Source of the DNA: Strigops habroptila
Lineage: Eukaryota > Chordata > Aves > Psittaciformes > Psittacidae
Direction: 5' to 3'
Assembly: GCF_004027225.2 (NCBI RefSeq)
Contig: NW_022651110.1
Span: 638,517 to 702,516 of the forward strand
DNA: 64,000 bases
Below the pieces are notes generated by a model. The model saw only the letters and a list, made by a program, of their open reading frames with translations, was not told the DNA's origin and made no database searches. Made by a program: the position numbers and the translations under genes. This document shows positions 224 to 30,200 of this stretch, piece after piece. Position 1 is the stretch's first letter. Each line of letters starts with the position of its first letter.

Positions 224-3200
224 CTGTGGAGACAGGGAAGCAAGGAATAGCGGCGTTCCTCAACGGACAGACGACTCCCAGGGTGGCAAAGGTTATGGGA
301 TGAGGTTCAAAAAGGCCTTGAGGGGATGGAGGGCATCCAAGTTGGGTGGGAGCGTGGAGCTGCTGGAGGGGCTCCAGAAGGAGCTGGATCCATGGGATGA
401 GGTTCAACCCTAAACCTGCCGCTTGGGCCCCACCAACGCTCCGGGCTTGGGGAAGAGTGGCTGGAAACTGCTCCTGGAAAAGGAGCTGGGGGTGCGGATT
501 GATGGAGCTGAACGAGAGCTCGGAGCCAAGAATTCCAGCAGCATCCTGGCCTGGAGCAGCACCAGGGTGGCAGCAGGGCCAGGGCAGGGATTGTCCCCCT
601 GTGCTGGGCGCTGGGGACCTTATCGCTCTCTACCCGACAGGAGGATGGAGCCAGGAGGGCACTGGTCTCTGCTCCCAAGGGATGGGACAAGAGGAAACGG
701 CCTCAAGCTGCTCCAGGGGAGGTTTAGATGGATACTGGGAACAATTCCTTCCCCAGAGGGTGCTCAGGCATTGGAACAGCCTGGAAGTGTTCCCAACCCG
801 TGCAGCCGAGGCCCTCAGTGCCATGGGTTAGTGGTGGCCTTGGCAGTGCTGGGCAACGGTTGGGCTTGAGGAGCTTAAAGGTCTTTCCCAACGTGGTTGA
901 TTCCATGGTCCTAAAGCCCCAAATTGGAAGCTCAAATGCACCGGGATACACCAGGAAAACACAACACTGGGGGCTGTGGGGAGCTGGAGGGCTTCCCAGG
1001 GGGAAGAGCCACTGCCCAGAGCACTGGGATAATGCAGATGCTCACATCCCATCCCTGGCAGTGTTCAAAGCCAGGCTGGACAGGGCTTGGAGCAACTTGG
1101 TCTAGTGGAAGGTGGTTGGGACTGGATGAGCTTTAAGGTCCCTTCCAACCCAAACCATTCCGTGATTCCCACTCGTGCTCCCAGGAAGCAGCAATTCTCG
1201 CTCCTGATGCAGCAGCCAAGCCCAGCTTCCATGAGGAGGAAGGGCTCTGGATGAAGGGATGTGGAGCTGGTGGCACCAGGACAAACACCATGTGCCTAAA
1301 CCAAGCACATCCCGGCTAATCCGAGTGCTGGATGCTTGGTCCTCGAGTGGGAGCAACTCCTGCCTCTGGGAAGCACCAATTCCCAGCGTGTGGATGAAGA
1401 GGAGGAGGAAGATGAAGCGGGAAGAGGTTTTAGCACCAAAAAGAAGCCACAACCATATCCCAAAGGATAAACACGACCATCATCACTGTGTTGGGATAGG
1501 GAAGTTGAGGCAGATTCCTGCCTGGAATTACCAGCAGTTCCAATCTGCATGGAAAGGGAGGCTCCAGCAGGATAACTGCGTGTGGAGGGAGACAGGCACA
1601 GGCAGGACTTGCCCAGCTGCTCCCAGGCTCTGCACATCCATTCCCAATGGTGGGAAGAGCTCTCTGGGGCTGTAATTCCTAACCTGAGCTGGGATTTTGG
1701 GAGCTGCTGAAGCGATGCTGGGAAGGGACCTATGGAAAGGAGGGAACTATGGAGGGGAGGGGCTGATGGAGAGGAGGGACCAAAGGAGAGGAGGGACCTA
1801 TGGAGAGAAGGGATCTGTGGAAAGAAGGGATCTATGGAAAGGAGGGACCAAAGGAGAGGAGGGACCTATGGAGAGAAGGGATCTATGGAGAGGAGGGATC
1901 TATGGAAAGGAGGGACCTATGGAGAGGAGGGACCTATGGAGAGAAGGGATCTGTGGAAAGAAGGGATCTATGGAAAGGAGGGACCAAAGGAGAGGAGGGA
2001 CCTATGGAGAGAAGGGATCTATGGAGAGGAGGGACCTATGGAAAAGAGAGACCTGCAGAAAGGAGGGTTTTCCACACCAGCCAAACCACAGCCTGGAGGA
2101 GCCAAGGGAATTGAATCAGGGCAGAGATGTGAGGAGCTCACAGGGCAGAGCCAGTGGTTTTCCTGAAATCCCAATGGGAATGCCCATTTCACAGGAAAGA
2201 CTGTCCCATCCAAGAGTCACAACTGAGCCGCACACATCAGCTGGCACGGCCATTCCCAAACTCCGGCTCCTGAGGGATGCCTGGCTTGGCAGGAGCAGGA
2301 TGGGAGAAGCCACGATTTTCCCTCCCCTCATCCACACGGGAAAGACGGAATAAATAAACCCAAACTCACTCAAATTGAGGGGTCCTTCCTCATCCGCCTG
2401 CGGCCACTGTGCGTTGGGGGAGCTCTGCAGAGGGCTCAGCGAGAGCTTGGAGCTCTTCTCCTCAAGGTTCTTCGGCGACGGGGACCCTGAGAGAGCTGCT
2501 GGCACCTTCTTAAGGATGGGAGATCCTGGTTGGGAAAGGCTTTTGGAGAAGCCAGGAGGAGATTTGATGGCTTTGTTAACAGGCCCATCCGTCGGGCGGT
2601 CGCCGGCTTTGCCGAGCGCCAGGAGCGTGGGGCGAGGGGAGGCGGTGGTGGCATCTTTGGGGGGTTTCTTGCCCAGGGGAGGAGCGATGGGGCTGCCATC
2701 GGGTTTGCTCTTCTGCTTCATCAGTTCATAGAGCAGGTCGATGGGAGCCCCGCTGCTCTCGGACTCGGCCACACCGAGCTGCCGCAGGTGGGAGCGCGCG
2801 TGGCTGGAGAGGCCTTTGCGGGTCTCGAAGCAGGCGCCGCACACCTCGCACGTCGTGAGGTTCTGGGCTGGAAACAGGAGGGAAAAGAGGGAGAAATGAG
2901 TAAATCAGGGGGTAAACGTGGTGGCAAGCGCAAGGAACAGCATCCGGCCATGTTGGTTTATCCCCTTTCAAGGGGTTTTTACCACGCCAAGCCTGGTTTT
3001 GAACATTAAATTGGTTCTGAGCTGGAAAGAGCAAGTAAAAGAGAAAGAAATGAGTAAATCAGGGGGTAAACGTGGTGGCAAGCGCAAGGAACAGCATCCG
3101 GCCATGTTGGTTTATCCCCTTTCAAGGGGTTTTTACCACGCCAAGCCTGGTTTTGAACATTAAATTGGTTCTGAGCTGGAAAGAGCAAGTAAAAGAGAAA

Positions 3201-6200
3201 GAAATGAGTAAATCAGGGGGTAAATGCGGTGCGACGCACAAGGAGCAGGGTTTGGCCACGCTGTTTTATGCCCCCTCAAGGGGTTTTTACCACCCCATTC
3301 ATAGAATCAACCCAACCCTCATTCAGAGAATTAAAGGATTTGGAACATTAGTTCGGTTCTGGGCTGGAAAGAGGATGGAAAATAGAGAGAAATGAATAAA
3401 TCAGGGGGTAAATGCGATGGGAAGCACAAGGAGCAGCCTTGTGGCTGTTGTTTCTCCCCCTCTCGAGGGGGTTTTATCAGCCCAACCCTCATTCATAGAA
3501 TCATAGAATGATTTGGAACATTAATTAGGTTCTGGGCTGGAAAGGAAAACGAAGAGAAATGAGTAAATCAAGGTGCAAACGGGGTGGAAAGCACAAAGAG
3601 CAGGATCTGGCCATGCTGTTTCATCCCCCTTCAAGGGGTTTTTAGCACCCAAATGCTCATTCATAGAATCACAGAATGATTTGGAAGGTTAATTTGGTTC
3701 TGGGCTGGAGAGAGGAAGGAAAAGAGAAAGAAATGAGTAAATCAGGGTGTAAAGGCAGCGGGAGGCACAAGGAGCAGGCTCTGGCCACACCAGTTTATCC
3801 CGTCTCAAGGTGGTTTTCCCACCCCAACCCTCGTTTTGGCCATTAAACAGCTCTGTGCATCCCTGCAGGGGCAGGAATAACGCAGGGAAGAGCGAGTGGA
3901 GCTGTGGGAGGAGCAGGATCACTGCTCTGAGGTGGCAGGAGGCTGGTTTCCCTGTTTTCCAGGTGGGTTTGGAAGCCTTGCCCACTATTAGTGACCCGCA
4001 GGCAGGCTCCAAAGCTCAGCAGAGAGGGATCCCCAAGAGATTGTTTTAGGGAATGCTGTCAACTGGGATGGGAAGGATGGATTGAGGCGGTTTAAGGAGG
4101 ATTGGGAATGCAGGTTGGTCCTGGAGAGCTTTGGGAAGCTGCTGGTGCAGGGAAGGCAAAGAGATGTAAACTACTGACAGCAGAGGACAACGCAACCACC
4201 TCTTCAAGAGAGGATTAACGAAAAGGACCTGAAAATCCCCATGGATTGGGATAAACCAGCTCCTTGCTCCCTCCCCACAGCAAAAACCTGGTGTTGAGCT
4301 GTCCAAAACAAGAAATTGAGGCAAAATACTCACTTTTAGGGTTGAAATACTCACTTTTGGGGTCAAAATACTCACTTTTGGGGTCCTGAGGCTCTGCTTT
4401 GCTCCCGGGTGGTTCCGGAGACACTTTGGTCCCTATCCTGGAGGGGGGTGGATCCAGCTGCCCACTGGGAAGGCTTTTTTTGGGGAGAGGGGGGGAAGCC
4501 ACCTCCATGGCCACCAGTTCTTCCTCTTCCGGAGCCAGGACTGTGGAGAGAAGGACACTGTCACCCCCTCAGGGTGGAAATGGCCCCGAGGGACATCGAG
4601 GTGAGGAGGTGGCTTTGGTACATGAAGGTTTGAGCAGTTCCAGAGGGAGAACAGGGTCTGCCTTGAGAGGGGACACCCCCCCAGTGGCAGGGTACACCAC
4701 TGGGGTGGCAGTGACCTGCCCAAGGGATTTGGGGTGCTTGTGGACAGTGGGAAGGGGGGACAATGGTGGCAGGTCCCTGCAGAGGGGGGACACAGTGACA
4801 GGTCCCTCAGGCGACACATGAAGGTGGCATCATCAAGGGGGGACAAGGACACAAAGGTGGCATCTGTCTGCAAGGGGATGGATGGATGGTGGCAGCTCCA
4901 TGGGGAAGGGGACAGGGATGGTGGCAGGTCCCTATGGGAAGGGGACGGGGAAGGCAGCAGCTCCAGGGGGAAGGGGACGGGGATGGTGGCAGGTCCCTAT
5001 GGGGAAGGGGACAGGGATGGCGGCAGGTCCCTATGGGAAGGGGACGGGGAAGGCAGCAGCTCCAGGGGGAAGGGGACGGGGATGGTGGCAGGTCCCTATG
5101 GGGAAGGGGACAGGGATGGCGGCAGCTCCATGGGAAGGGGACAGGGATGGTGGCATCTCTCTATGGGAAGGGGACACCAATGGCTGCAGTTCCCTATAGG
5201 AAGGGGACAGGGATGGCGGCATTTCCCTGTGGGAAGGGGACAGGGATGGCGGCAGCTCCATGGGAAGGGGAGAGGGATGGTGGCAGCTCCATGGGAAGGG
5301 GACACCAATGGCGGCAGTTCCCTATGGGAAGGGGACAGGGATGGCGGCATCTGTCTACAGGAAGGGGACAGGGAAGGCAGCAGCTCCAGGGGGACAGGGA
5401 TGGGGATGGTGGCAGGTCCCTATGGGAAGGGGACAGGGATGGCGGCATCTCTCCATGGGAAGGGGACAGGGATGGCGGCCGCTCCCCGCAGCAGCTGAAG
5501 GCCGCCGGCAGCTCCGCCGTGCCCGGGGGCAGGTCGGGGGCAGCCTCGGCCCCGCCGGGTCCCGGTTCCCCCAGGGGGCGGTGCCGGGCGCGGTCAGGCT
5601 TTGCATCCCCCCCCCACCACCACCACCACCCCGGATCGTGTCCCGCCCCCCACGGGCGGGCGTGGAGGAGGCAAAAACCTTCCCCCCCCTCCCAGCGGTG
5701 ACAAGAACCGGGCGCGGCCCGTTGCGAGCGACCAGGCCGGGCCGGTGGGGGGGGACCCGCGGAGAGGATGGGACAAAGCGAGGGCCGGGGTACGGACAAA
5801 GGAGGGCGGCGGCTCGGCGACAGCGGCCTCCGCGGGGCCTGCCCCGGTCCCCTCCGCCCGCCCCGGGAGCCGCGGGCTCGGCCCGGGCCGCGGAGCCGCT
5901 GCGGCGGGAGGAAGGGGTTTGGGGGGGGGGGGGAACGGGAGGGGGGGGGCCCGCGGGTGGGCCCGGGCGCGGCGGGGCGGGGCGGGCGCAGGGAGATGGG
6001 GGCTCACCCGGCTCGGGCGACGCCTCGGGCTCGGGTTCGCCGTCCCCGCCCCGGTCCCGGTCGCGGGGTCGCGGCGGCGCCGCCGCTTTTGTCACTTTGG
6101 GCTGCGAGGAGGTGGAGGCCGCCATCTTGGCTCCGGCACATGCGGGGCGGCCGCCAGGGCGGAGGGCCGAGCGCCGAGCCGCCCGCCCGCCAGGACGAAA

Positions 6201-12200: not shown

Positions 12201-15200
12201 AAGCCAAACCCAAAGCGAGAGTTGAATAAATACTCGACTGGTTGCAACAGAGACTCTCAGAGAACACATGGAAGCATCATGTGGGGCTGGGAGCAACACA
12301 AGGAGGAGTTCAAGTCATCTCCGTGAGCTTGGGAGTGGAACTAAGAGGCTCCAGGCTTGGATTTGAATACAAAAGCCATCCAGAGTCACTGTATCCACGT
12401 GGTCGCTGTGCACACGTGGGTCACGCAACAGGTTCCTGCACTGGGGAATCTGAAGCCTTCCAAATTTCCATGTTTTCTTGGTAAAGACACAGCAAAGGGA
12501 ATATGAAGCATGTCACTTTAAACCCAGGAACACAGCCTAAGGGGAAAGCTTCAGCTTAAGCTCCTGCTCTTGTGCAGAGCCCTCTGCTCATCCCTCATGT
12601 TCCTCCTCAACCGCATCCAGCTTTAAACACAACACTGAAGCAAAGCTTGAATTCAGCTCTTCAAATCAAGCTCTAACTCAACTCCTTTTACTTCCAAGGA
12701 CAATTCCCAACCCCATTTCTCCCACCACACACCCACTGCCATCTCCAGGAGATGGGCACAGCGAGGAGCAGGAGATGTTCCCATCACATGCTGAAAGCCT
12801 TGGGGTGACACTGAAGTGATGAGCAAGATCATGGTGCAGGATGCGACCCACTTTTGCCCCCTAAACCTCACTTTGGGGACATTTGCTAGTAGATCTGCCA
12901 CGTTATGAACTGCATGAACCTCTTGTAACCAAACGGTGGCCACAAGATACTTTCCACCCTTCTTAACGAGCAAATACCCAAGTCCTGGCTCTTCAAACAG
13001 CAGCGCTATCCAGAACAACTCGGTCCAGTGAATTCTGGGCACCAGGAGACCTAAATCTTCCCAGGAAACAGGCACAGTCAGCAGGAACATCAGCTGAGCC
13101 CTCCAAACACCTCCCCTTGGCATCAACCTCAGGCTGGCAGCTCTTCATCCTCTAAGGTTTGTTGTACCAAGAAAGAAGAGTCTGGGGGGGGTGGGGGTGT
13201 GTTGTGGTTTCATTTGTGTTCATTATGCTCCAGACTCATCCCAAAAAGCAGCCAAAGTCACATGGAGCAGCCCGGAGAGCCGGGATTACAGGCTCTTTGG
13301 AATTTCAATTACAGACACATAGCTTCTCCCTGCAGGGATCTCTATCATAGGATTAGGCTGAGTAGAACCTAATGATAAGCTCCTTTAAAGACTTCAAGAC
13401 GCTGCCAGAAGCACCAAGTGTCACGGGGTGGTTGGAATCCCCAACACAAGCTTTTAGGCTTTGGAAGGTTCTGGTGCACACTCAGGTTTTGGAGCCTGGA
13501 AGCTGTTTGGGACAGGCTCAGCTCTGGGATAGATAAACCTGTTTGAATGGTTTGGAGCTTCACTGCTGGAGGGGAACCAGCTCAGATCCAAATCCACTTG
13601 GGAAGGAGCCTTTATGGTCCTTTCCCCCCACAGGAACGCCTACAGAAAACAAGGAGCTGATGGGTGAACGCAGATCCCCAGACCAGAGGTTGCATCCTGC
13701 ATGGATGCAACCAGTGACCACACTCTTCTCCTTTCCTCCAGCCCGTAACTGGAGAAGCTTTAGGGGTTTCCCAACTGGAAACCTCATTCCTAAACACAAC
13801 CTTTGCGAAGAACAAAGCCTGAACATTCAAAGCACAGATCCCTTGTGGAATGTGACCCCTCCATGAGCCAGCACTGCCCGGCCCTCTCATCTGCTGGCAC
13901 CTCCATCCATCTGCCCCCAACCCAGCAGCAGGCAGGACACAGCATCAGTAACACCACGTTACACCAGCTCAACCCTTCCCTGTAGATATCCACCCTCCAA
14001 CATGGTTTGGGGTCATCACAAGGGCTTGGGGCTTGAACTCACCATCTCTGTAGGACTGCAGGGACTCATCTCCCCAGGACGTGGGGAACGGGGACAGAGG
14101 AGACCGTGGAATGCTGCACTCAGACATGGGGGTCATGCTCTTGCGAGGCACGAAGCCGTGAGCTTCCCTCTCTCTGCCTGGGGATGAAGGCTCCGCTCCC
14201 ATCGCTGCCTGCAGCATTGGATGCTCCGAGGAGTTGGCCAACAGCTCCTTGAGGATGTTAATGGGCGAGATGGTGAGTTCCCAGTTGGTGATCCCAAAGT
14301 CTCTCAGATGGGCTCTGGCGTGGCTGGAGAGACCGGCGCGCGTGTCGAAGCCGGCGCCGCAGAACTCGCAGCGCATCAGGCTGAAGGTGCTGGGGTCGAA
14401 GTTGGCAACTGTGGGAAGAAGGGGACAGAGTCAACGACACCGGGACAAGCCCATTCTGGTGGTGGTTCTCGCACCCAGGACAACGTGGAGCCGTGGCCAC
14501 CACGGTTGTGGTTGAGCACAGCCCCATACGTACCCAAGTGGTGGTGGGAGGAGAAAAGCCAAGTGGTTAGGGCAAGAAAAGAGGGGCACGGTGAATTGAA
14601 TACATACTACCTTTTTTCTTCTTCTTTTGGAAGGAAAACTTTTGCTCAATAGCTTTGACTTCTTCTGCTGAGATGAAGTGACGGACGTTGTAGCTCACCC
14701 CCACCCTGTTGAGGTGGCCCCGCACGTGGTTCGCCAGCCCGATGCCGTTGTGGAACCGGTCAGGGCAATAGGGACATTTCCTCTCCTCGTTCTTCAGCAT
14801 GGGTGAGTCGGAGTCCAAGAGGTCATCAAGCTCCAGAGGACCCTCCAGAGGAGCGTCCAACAGGAGCATATCCAAGGGAATGGGCTCTTCCATCATGAAG
14901 TCCCGGGATGGGAGTAGCGCTTTCTTCTTGAAGGGCTTTCCCCGGGGCCTCTTTGTCGCTTTGGGATGCAGGTTCACCTCCTCCACGAGGACGATGGGGA
15001 CCATCATCCGCAATTGCTGCTGCTGCTCCTCTGAAGCTATCGAAGAGTCCGTGGCCTTCAAGGTGTCTCTGAATGTCCTCTTGAGGTCCAAGGCAGCTTG
15101 AGGGATGGTGATGGGTTTGATGCCTCTGTTCTCACCCAAATCCATCTCTGTGCTTACGGAGATCTCCTCTTCCATGCTCGCAGCATCGTTGCCCAACATC

Positions 15201-27200: not shown

Positions 27201-30200
27201 TCACACGTCAGCTCCAGCTGAAGCCACCCCACATTCCCCATCCACCAGCAACACACATTGATGGCCAAGCACCCACTGAGGGCCTGTCCTTCCCAATGGA
27301 TGGGCTTTGGGACAAGCACTGGTGTCCCTTCCCGACTCCCTAAAACGGAGCATGGGCATTCCCACCCTCTTCCATACAGGAGGGAATCCCATCCCTGCAT
27401 GGAACCGAGCCCATCTACTGTGTCCCCTGGTTGGTGTCACCCAGCCTGGACACCACAGACCCCCCCGAAACCCCACATGAGACCATGGCACGTGGACCAG
27501 TGTCCTACCATGTGCTCCGGGATGAAGGGATCCCTCTCTCCTCTGTCACCATCACTGGTCCAGGGTTCTCCTGTCCCTCTCACCTCTCTCACCATCACCA
27601 CTCTGGGTTCTCCTGTCCCTCTCTCCTATGTCACCATCACTGGTCCAGGGTTCTCCTGTCCCTCTCTCCTCTGTCACCATCACTGGTCCAGGGTTCTCCT
27701 GTCCCTCTCACCTCTGTCACCATCACTGGTCCAGGGTTCTCCTGTCCCTCTCACCTCTGTCACCATCACTGGTCCAGGGTTCTCCTGTCCCTCTCACCTC
27801 TGTCACCATCACTGGTCCAGGGTTCTCCTGTCCCTCTCACCTCTGTCACCATCACTGGTCCAGGGTTCTCCTGTCCCTCTCACCTCTGTCACCATCACTG
27901 GTCCAGGGTTCTCCTGTCCCTCTCACCTCTGTCACCATCACCACTCCGGGTTCTCCTGTCCCCCCTCTCACAACCCTGCAGCAGTTGGGAAGGCAGCAGC
28001 CGCTCAGGATGTGGGCTCTGGGTCTCAGCAGCCAGAGGTGGAGACCTGCTGCAAGGGGAGGTGCTGGACGTGCTGACTCAGCACCCAGCAAGCTCCAGCT
28101 CATCCCAGCACAATCCCCCCCCCCCCCAGCTCCACTCCACTGCTCCAGGTTGGGTGGAGAAGTGGTTCAGAGCAGCCTGAGGAGAAGGATTTGGGGGTGT
28201 TGGGTGAGGAGAAGCTCAATGTGACCCATCGACAACCTCCCATGTGCTGGGCTGCGTCAAGTGTGAGCAGCTGAGCCTGCCCCCCTGCTCTGCTCTGGTG
28301 ACACCCCACTTGGGTGCTGCATCCAGCTCTGGTGGCCTCAACATAAGGAGGACATGGAGCTGTTGGAGCAAGGCCAGAGGAGGCCACGAGGATGAGCAGG
28401 GGCTGGAGCAGCTCCCACATGGAGCCAGGCTGAGAACATTGGGGCTGGAGAAGAGAAGCTGCGTGGAGAGCTCAGAGCAGCTCCCAGGGGCTGAAGGGGG
28501 GTCCAGGGATGTGGAGAAGGAGCTTCAGCAGTGATAGGACAAGGGGTGATGGGTTCAAACTGAAACAGGGAAGTTCAGGTTGGAGATAAGGAAGAAGTTC
28601 TTCCCTGGGAGGGTGGTGGGACACTGGAATGGGTTGAATGGAGAAGGTTTGGATGCCCCATCGCTGGCAGTGTTCAAGGCCAGGTTGGACACAGCTTGGA
28701 GCAACCTGCTCTAGTGGAAGGTGTCCTTGCCCGTGGCAGGGGGTTGGAACTGGATGGGCTTTAAGCTCCCTTCAACCCAACCCATTCCATGATTCCATGA
28801 CTCTAAGTGTGTTTGCAACCTGCAGCTCCCTGACTTCTGGAGGCAGCAGAGCAGAGCCAGCAACTGTCAGCAGCTCCAACAGGCATCCGCTCCCTGCTGG
28901 AAAACCTCCAGCCCATCCGAGGAGGTGGAAACCCCCTTTTTCCACCCCAAAACTCCATAAACAACAGGTGAAAGACCCCCCACATGAGGTTCCATCAGCG
29001 GTGTGTGAGTGAGATGAACCCCAAGTGCTGGAGGTGTGGGGAAGGGGGAAGGACCCGGAGTTGTGAGCAGCCGGCAGCGTGGCTTGTTTGCCTTGGCACG
29101 ATCCACAGGGAACCCGACACGTTCCCAGAGAGCAGCTTGGCTCCTATTCCCAGCCTCCCCACACTCCCTGCCCACAGCACACGGGTCACACTTGGCTCTT
29201 CTCGGCTCTTGGGGTACGTGCAGAGCTCAGGAGGGCGATGAAGAGCCCAAACCCATCCCGAAAGCTCCAGGAGCTGAGGGGAGAAGCTCTGGGTTGTGCT
29301 TCCTCCAAGAGAAAAGTGGTCCAAGGCCAACAGTCAGGCTTAAGGGCTTGGTCCCAGCCTCCGGGACAACAGGGAATTGCCAGGATACTCCAAGCCTTTG
29401 GGTGATTTCAGGCTCCAACGGGATTCCCAAGGCTCTCACAGATGAGACCATGGGGCAAGGGCAGGCAGTGCCCCAAACCTGCTCCTTCTTCTGCCAGCCT
29501 GGCCCATGCTGCAACCTCTGAGCATCACTCGCACCAACGATGCCCGGCCTGAAGCACCTTCTGGGATGGTCCCAATCCCATTTAGCCCCAGGACAACAAC
29601 CTCCAACCCAAAATCTCTCCCCAGTGTTTGCCATTCCAATCCCAAATTCCCAAAACTGGGAATTACCAAGCCTTTTAAAAGCAAAAGCAATGAGAAAGAG
29701 CCCCCCACTGAGGGTGCCAGCCCAGCACTAAGGTCTTCTCCCTGCAGCTAAGAGCCCAAATTGAGCCTTTTCAGAGGATTCCAAGCAGATCCTTGCAAAC
29801 CTTTCCTTGCTTTTTCACTTCCCTGAAAGAGTTCCAGGAGCAAATTCATCCCCTTGGATCCATCCAGCTTTAAGGAAGATTTATGGGACCGGAGGCAAAA
29901 ACTTCCCTCGTCAGCAGAGGACACATCCAGCAGCTCATGGAAGAGCAGTTTCAATCCAAGCTGCTTGACAGGATTCCAGCCTCTGGTGCAGACTCATCTT
30001 GTTTGGATCCATCCCGATTCATTCCATTCCAGGAAAGATTTGGCTTCCCCATGATTAAAACAGGGTTAAACCACCTAACAGCAATGATGGAGGAAGGATT
30101 TGGCTTCCCCATGGTTAAAACTGGGTTTAAACATGTAAAACAGCATTGATAGAGGAAGGATTTGGCCTCCCGATGGTTAAAACTGGGTTTAAACATGTAA

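What the first reader, a model, noticed from the sequence alone, without database searches (positions are those of the whole stretch)
2868..3835. Array of five decoy copies of the WIZ exon 7 acceptor
The tandem unit includes the pyrimidine tract, CAG and first exon bases of the real exon 7 boundary. AG-equivalent positions are 3022-3023, 3176-3177, 3364-3365, 3537-3538 and 3705-3706, against the true site at 2868-2869. The duplication therefore began inside the splice junction. Using a decoy adds 154 nt or more and shifts frame into exon 7, so the cell must discriminate between near-identical sites. Coupled to the triple donor at the other end of the same intron, this is a multiplied-splice-site intron.
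Basis: partly seen in the sequence, partly recalled or inferred. Interest (0 to 1): 0.8.

Follow-up and report, generated by a model that had tools for sequence, protein, structure and literature searches.

The report
Copied splice sites in bird WIZ
One intron of a bird WIZ gene carries five extra tandem copies of the splice signal that starts the next exon, each looking about as strong as the real one: it fits the recently described "exon stuttering" of bird genomes, and makes a natural test of how cells pick one splice site among near-identical ones.

Summary
On the minus strand, upstream of the exon at 2370-2867 (WIZ; PDB "Protein Wiz"), five diverged tandem units repeat the acceptor: branch-point region, pyrimidine tract, CAG and the first 9 exon bases (9/9 in three copies, 8/9 in two).

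Correction: extensions are +154, +308, +496, +669 and +837; the last two keep frame. All 15 decoy-donor combinations still meet a premature stop at least 356 nt before the exon's donor; all 3 donors joined to the true site stay open. By a recalled weight matrix the true acceptor scores lowest of six.

Best reading: "exon stuttering", published for chicken dot chromosomes in 2026 (PMC12954441), a local tandem duplication that swept in an exon edge. Only the terminal copy keeps a full exon, so exon definition probably selects it. Both ends of this intron are affected; 7 other junctions tested are not.

Unexplained: decoy branch-point and AG/exon blocks vary less than the unit body (2/29 against 51/102 columns; post hoc). 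No RNA or second bird was available.

The parts
2370..2867 (-).
   Evidence: open frame and junctions; PDB 8tzx_C 'Protein Wiz' E 2.2e-12; only full-length match in the assembly
2868..2869 (-). AG of the true acceptor (recalled-matrix score 11.81, lowest of the six)
2859..3849 (-). tandem array: six acceptor modules, start-to-start spacing 154-188 nt, first unit beginning 9 nt inside the exon
3022..3023 (-). decoy acceptor AG d1 (score 12.79; +154 nt)
3176..3177 (-). decoy acceptor AG d2 (score 12.79; +308 nt); its 50-nt module is identical to that of d1
3364..3365 (-). decoy acceptor AG d3 (score 11.89; +496 nt)
3537..3538 (-). decoy acceptor AG d4 (score 13.22; +669 nt, frame kept, early stop)
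3705..3706 (-). decoy acceptor AG d5 (score 13.99; +837 nt, frame kept, early stop)
3013..3062 (-). d1 acceptor module: branch-point region, pyrimidine tract, CAG, 9 exon-derived bases (equivalents at 2859-2908, 3167-3216, 3355-3404, 3528-3571, 3696-3745)
   Evidence: alignment A1; branch-point-like motifs
4322..4385 (-). 21-nt triple repeat of the exon 6 donor; donor G at 4375, 4354, 4333, all AAA|GTGAGT, in-frame 7-aa steps
4376..4540 (-). WIZ exon 6 (165 nt to the first donor, phase 1 at both ends)
2983..3021 (-). possible 39-nt in-frame mini-exon between d1 and a weak donor GTG|GTAAAA (same at 3137-3175 for d2)
   Evidence: hypothetical

Best explanation
This is exon stuttering: local tandem duplication on a repeat-ridden small bird contig in which the duplicated block ran from inside the intron across the splice junction into the first 9-10 bases of the WIZ exon. 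Duplication therefore copied a complete acceptor (branch-point region, pyrimidine tract, CAG, exon edge) upstream of the original. Sequence at the sites does not single out the true one: from -151 to +9 it differs from d1 at only 7 of 160 positions, and by a recalled matrix it scores lowest of the six. What differs is what follows: only the terminal copy is followed by a GC-rich 498-nt exon with a donor, while decoys are followed by 46%-GC array. The true site is therefore most likely chosen by exon sequence and exon definition, and any decoy leak would give transcripts with premature stops, expected to be degraded. Shown: anatomy, breakpoint, scores, frames. Inferred: mechanism of duplication, site choice, decay of leak products.
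For: Array begins inside the exon and shares 8-10 exon bases. True site versus d1: 7 differences in 160 nt; recalled-matrix scores 11.81 true against 11.89-13.99 decoys. GC of the 100 nt downstream: 0.71 after the true site, 0.43-0.48 after the five decoys. 15 of 15 decoy-donor combinations have a stop at least 356 nt before the exon's donor; 3 of 3 donors with the true site are open. The contig is full of tandem repeats: 28.5% of 245.8 kb, against 0-1.4% in three 5-kb samples of contigs of 156, 83 and 27 Mb. Of 9 WIZ junctions tested only the two of this intron have copies (2 and 5), shuffled controls 0. PMC12954441 (sections 7, 9 and 16 and part 1 of section 8 read) describes this kind of event in chicken. 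With duplicated beta-globin 3' sites whose upstream copy carried 14, 55 or 205 nt of exon, PMC5389562 reports very inefficient splicing, exclusively to the distal site (passages).
Against: The branch-point region and the CCAG+9 exon bases of the units vary less than the body (2 of 29 against 51 of 102 columns), which freed decoys should not show. Purine-rich GAR-like trinucleotides do not favour the true site (5 against 5-10). The copied exon part (9-10 nt) is under the 20-nt limit of the published screen. No RNA evidence that the true site is used rather than a decoy. Identity of the contig as a dot chromosome was not tested by synteny.
Confidence: 0.72

Rival explanations
1. The decoys are kept working by selection: the array is a regulated unproductive-splicing switch. 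Decoy use yields premature-stop transcripts and so tunes WIZ dose.
For: Branch-point block K80 0.053 and CCAG+exon block 0.032 against 0.343 for the body and 0.297 for the pyrimidine tract between them. Core against body variable columns: Fisher 1.2e-5 with rows true, d3, d4, d5 and 8.6e-5 with decoys d1, d3, d4, d5. The 50-column module is more conserved than all but 2 of 20000 random column sets. All 5 decoy AGs intact; all 15 products carry early stops.
Against: The partition into blocks was made after seeing the alignment. A scan-corrected test gives 102/20000 (four rows), 202 and 296/20000 (decoys only), but 1574/20000 with all six rows. 2 of 34 control arrays on the same contig are at p <= 0.001 in that kind of test. 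Gene conversion or repeated re-copying of the terminal unit could do the same. No RNA.
Confidence: 0.12
2. Fossil acceptors: every decoy was once the terminal, functional site, so it was constrained before each duplication and only later set free.
For: Array growth by copying units is visible: bodies of units 0 and 1 identical (104/104) and modules of d1 and d2 identical (50/50). Other body pairs are 62-79% alike.
Against: d5, the most distant copy, has no difference from the true site in the 29 core positions although its body differs at 27 of 103; a long-free copy should have decayed. The last duplication seems to have copied a decoy, not the true site.
Confidence: 0.08
3. Assembly or sequencing artefact: unit number or order is wrong.
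For: Units 0/1 and d1/d2 share long identical stretches, where collapse or expansion is easy; PMC12954441 notes that some local variation in such introns can be artefact.
Against: The other unit pairs differ at 21-38% of body sites, so they cannot be one unit repeated by error; the copied exon edge is in all.
Confidence: 0.04
4. d1 and d2 act as acceptors of 39-nt mini-exons ending at GTG|GTAAAA, adding [13 protein letters not shown] in frame.
For: Both segments are 39 nt, phase 1 to 1, without stops.
Against: Donor score 4.53 against 9.02 for the exon 6 donors; of the three decoys tried, d3 gives 73 nt and a frameshift.
Confidence: 0.03

Closest known systems
Exon stuttering / sequence stuttering on avian dot chromosomes (Hron et al. 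2026, PMC12954441)
   Same: Imperfect tandem blocks of tens to hundreds of bases in an intron, starting in the adjacent exon and copying its acceptor or donor; reported in 236 introns of 115 chicken genes.
   Different: Here only 9-10 exon bases are copied, below the 20-nt limit of their screen; both ends of one intron are hit; the sections I read do not score the copied sites. WIZ is not named in the main text (find); the gene list is in a supplement, and supplement look-ups are capped at 0 here, so it was not tried.
Duplicated 3' splice-site test RNAs (Reed and Maniatis 1986, recalled and seen only as a reference; later version in PMC5389562, passages read)
   Same: Near-identical acceptors compete, differing mainly in how much exon follows.
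   Different: Built constructs with two sites; here six sites in a natural gene.
Internal tandem repeats at exon-intron boundaries in human segmental duplications (PMC2812944, passages read)
   Same: Minisatellites at a boundary that can change splicing.
   Different: Half of those repeats lie in coding sequence, and those at boundaries are reported to form new introns; here the array is intronic and multiplies an existing acceptor.
NAGNAG and other tandem splice sites (recalled)
   Same: Several possible sites at one boundary.
   Different: Those are a few nt apart; decoys here are 154-188 nt apart and all lead to stops. The 21-nt donor triple of exon 6 is nearer to this class.

Membership tests
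[quoted passage not shown]
   five copies of 9 exon bases plus intron flank in register
Exon stuttering (PMC12954441) | copied block spans the exon-intron border and includes the splice site | tested here: met
   AG and exon bases in all five copies
Exon stuttering (PMC12954441) | exon part of at least 20 nt and bit score 42.1 or more (detection limit of their screen, not part of their stated criterion) | tested here: not met
   9 nt, 10 in d4; the screen as described would miss this case. The length was compared; the BLASTn bit score was not run
Exon stuttering (PMC12954441) | intron rich in tandem repeats on a dot chromosome | tested here: inconclusive
   contig 784 kb, 28.5% tandem repeat in 245.8 kb, GC 0.557 with the 10.5 kb of N counted, about 0.58 without; synteny not tested; chicken dots are reported as extremely GC-rich (PMC9974502, passages)
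Exon stuttering (PMC12954441) | intron length varies between individuals | not testable with these tools
   one assembly only
Functional alternative acceptor cluster | spliced reads at more than one acceptor | not testable with these tools
   no RNA data
Functional alternative acceptor cluster | complete signals (branch-point-like motif, pyrimidine tract, AG, no other AG between) | tested here: met
   yTnAy motifs 24-46 nt upstream (d1 and d2 have one more at 15 nt) and no other AG within 59 nt in all six; a consensus match is not proof of use

The most novel reading that the evidence does not exclude
The decoy acceptors are not passive: their branch-point and AG/exon blocks are preserved by selection, so a stuttered exon edge has become a dose-setting array in which each unit offers an unproductive, decay-coupled splice, and copy number (variable between individuals if it behaves as chicken stuttering introns do) sets WIZ output.
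Probability: 0.1. Interest if true: 0.75.

Novelty: new member of a known kind. Interest (0 to 1): 0.45.

Why it matters
It gives a natural version of the duplicated-acceptor experiment: six acceptors whose local signals, by a recalled matrix, do not favour the right one, at a gene that must still be spliced correctly. Between the true site and d1 only 7 of 160 positions differ, so the choice can be pinned on downstream exon sequence or position. It also shows exon stuttering below the 20-nt limit of the published screen, so the count there may be too low (inference), and it raises the testable question of whether stuttering burdens or tunes splicing in birds.

Tried and rejected
Generic pyrimidine-AG similarity: rejected, since exon bases are shared and none of 4127 other minus-strand AGs in the window matches. 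Claim that every decoy shifts frame: rejected for d4 and d5. Recursive splicing: rejected on sequence, since no GT follows the decoy AG. RNA families: 0 matches in the window at gathering threshold. RNA hairpin CCCCTTGAAAGGGG in unit bodies: five folds, z from -0.4 to -2.0, not pursued. A second donor-rich array (27531-27962) has seven strong donor-like sites, but no exon was recognised beside it by eye, so donor-like arrays alone are not special. The MicroFinder paper does not name WIZ in its main text (find). Paper searches that gave little: tandem arrays and splicing (only its PMC2812944 was opened), WIZ and splicing (listing only, none opened), decay with microchromosomes (listing only); passages of PMC12480690 were seen and not used. 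For the decoy conservation all results are given, also the weaker ones (six rows: 1574/20000; 2 of 34 controls at p <= 0.001, where 37 arrays were chosen and 3 dropped for having fewer than three distinct units; controls had 2000 permutations each). The acceptor and donor matrices, the branch-point consensus, the comparison with human WIZ that supports the exon start, the identity of the further WIZ exons, the CR1 name and the NAGNAG class are recalled or inferred from frames and come from no call.
Full report
WHAT WAS CHECKED. The window is bases 638517-702516 of contig C82 (784,362 bases) of a 1.15-Gb assembly in 89 contigs. The gene on the minus strand is WIZ: the exon at 2370-2867 matches the PDB chain 8tzx_C, 'Protein Wiz', at E 2.2e-12. 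The exon's protein has one full-length match in the assembly, two weaker matches on the same contig and one on C8.

ANATOMY. In transcript direction the intron starts at a donor repeated three times in 21-nt steps (G at 4375, 4354, 4333; AAA|GTGAGT each) and ends in an array of six acceptor modules, d5, d4, d3, d2, d1 and the true site (AG at 3705, 3537, 3364, 3176, 3022, 2868). The array spans about 2859-3849. Each unit carries a branch-point-like stretch with yTnAy motifs 24-46 nt upstream of the AG, a pyrimidine tract, CAG and the first 9 bases of the exon; no other AG lies within 59 nt upstream in any of the six. Exon bases: 9/9 in d3, d4 and d5, 8/9 in d1 and d2; 0 of 4127 other AGs on the minus strand of the window reach 8/9. 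So the block that was duplicated ended 9-10 bases inside the exon. The distal flank of the array (GCACAGAGCTGTTTAATGG) resembles the unit joint, which suggests a short homology at the breakpoint; this is inference.

IS IT MORE THAN CHANCE. In 245,846 bases of the contig (10,500 of them N), both strands, only this place has five or more acceptors at the 11.5 threshold within 1 kb (101 such sites in all). Of nine WIZ junctions tested for copies in their neighbouring introns, two have them: the donor (2 copies) and the acceptor (5 copies) of this one intron; the other seven have none and shuffled introns give 0 (ungapped, at least 22 of 30 and 7 of 9 exon bases; for the first acceptor tested only 3300 nt of the upstream intron was used). 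Tandem repeats are common here: 28.5% of the 245.8 kb and 26.6% of the window, against 0.0-1.4% in 5-kb samples of three large contigs. A fourth 5-kb sample, GC 0.68, from a 2.8-Mb contig, has 52%. An array reaching an exon edge is thus not surprising on this contig; one that carries a whole acceptor six times is the only one in the stretch examined at this threshold.

CONSEQUENCES OF USING A DECOY. The exon would gain 154, 308, 496, 669 or 837 nt. All 15 combinations of three donors and five decoys meet a stop, the nearest to the exon's donor 356 nt before it; the three donors with the true site stay open and differ by 7 and 14 residues. Decoy transcripts would therefore be expected to be degraded, by the usual rule of nonsense-mediated decay (established knowledge, not tested).

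WHY THE TRUE SITE COULD WIN. With a weight matrix written from memory the true site scores 11.81 and the decoys 11.89-13.99; the ranking is only as good as that matrix. The true site differs from d1 at 7 of 160 positions from -151 to +9. The difference that remains is what follows: 100 nt with GC 0.71 against 0.43-0.48 for the five decoys, and a real exon with a donor. Counts of purine-rich GAR-like trinucleotides in these 100 nt do not favour the true site (5 against 5-10), so no simple enhancer count explains it. [quoted passage not shown] Here the decoys carry 9-10 nt of exon. Choice by exon sequence and exon definition is therefore the best reading, not a shown fact.

HISTORY OF THE ARRAY. 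The latest event looks like a 154-nt duplication: unit bodies 0 and 1 are identical (104/104) and modules d1 and d2 are identical (50/50), while other body pairs are 62-79% alike. It seems to have copied a decoy, not the true site. Among units, leaving out one of each identical pair, the 16-nt branch-point block and the 13-nt CCAG+exon block have K80 distances 0.053 and 0.032, the pyrimidine tract 0.297 and the body 0.343. Variable columns: 2 of 29 in the core against 51 of 102 in the body with rows true, d3, d4, d5, Fisher 1.2e-5; decoys d1, d3, d4, d5 alone 3 of 29 against 51 of 102, 8.6e-5; all six rows 3 of 29 against 53 of 102, 3.8e-5. Random column sets reach the conservation of the 50-column module in 2 of 20000 draws. 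These blocks were drawn after looking at the alignment. With a scan over all windows the statistic is reached by 102 of 20000 permutations (four rows), 202 and 296 of 20000 (decoys only) and 1574 of 20000 (all six rows). Of 34 control arrays from the same contig, 2 have p <= 0.001 (37 chosen, 3 dropped for too few distinct units). So the pattern is suggestive of constraint on the decoys, and it is the one observation that the passive reading does not explain, but it is not proof; gene conversion could contribute.

COMPARISON WITH THE KNOWN. PMC12954441 (Hron et al. 2026; [quoted passage not shown] A search for 'exon stuttering', 'sequence stuttering' or 'dot chromosome' found 44 papers; of the 15 listed only this one holds the first two terms. 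Its screen needs at least 20 exon bases; this case has 9-10 and would be missed. WIZ is not in its main text; its supplementary gene list was not available to me. By their stated criterion this is a member; the dot-chromosome location is likely but not tested by synteny, and variation between individuals is untestable here.

VERDICT. What this case adds is a complete acceptor module copied five times with sites that score no lower than the true one, both ends of one intron affected, a copied exon edge shorter than the published screen can see, and a hint, not more, that the decoys are being kept.

Noticed in passing
window 4322-4385 (minus): Triple 21-nt donor of exon 6: three identical donors that extend the exon by 7 or 14 residues ([14 protein letters not shown]) without stop or frameshift.
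   Followed up: partly
window 27531-27962 (minus): 43-bp array of about 10 copies holding seven strong GAG|GTGAGA donor-like sites, with no exon recognised beside it.
   Followed up: partly
window 3295-3340, 3476-3510, 3644-3678: Three unit bodies (those between d2 and d3, d3 and d4, d4 and d5) hold a CATAGAATC-type stretch like the tail of bird CR1 elements (recalled); the outermost and the two innermost bodies lack it.
   Followed up: no
window 2905-3830, unit bodies: Unit bodies have a CCCCTT..AAGGGG-type hairpin, imperfect in the outermost; folding z-scores of five bodies -0.4 to -2.0.
   Followed up: no
C82, about 620450-620750 (window -18065 to -17765), plus strand: A second cluster of four acceptor-like sites at the 11.5 threshold within 300 nt.
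   Followed up: no
window 14042 and 2867 (minus): The preceding exon (donor at 14042) and this exon seem to meet in phase 1, and exon 6 is symmetric, so exon 6 may be a cassette exon; direct joining would match human WIZ as recalled.
   Followed up: no
C82 about 726592-726887 and 779297-779650 (window-relative 88076-88371 and 140781-141134): Two other tandem arrays have one block far more conserved than the rest (p <= 0.001 of 2000 permutations); cause unknown.
   Followed up: no
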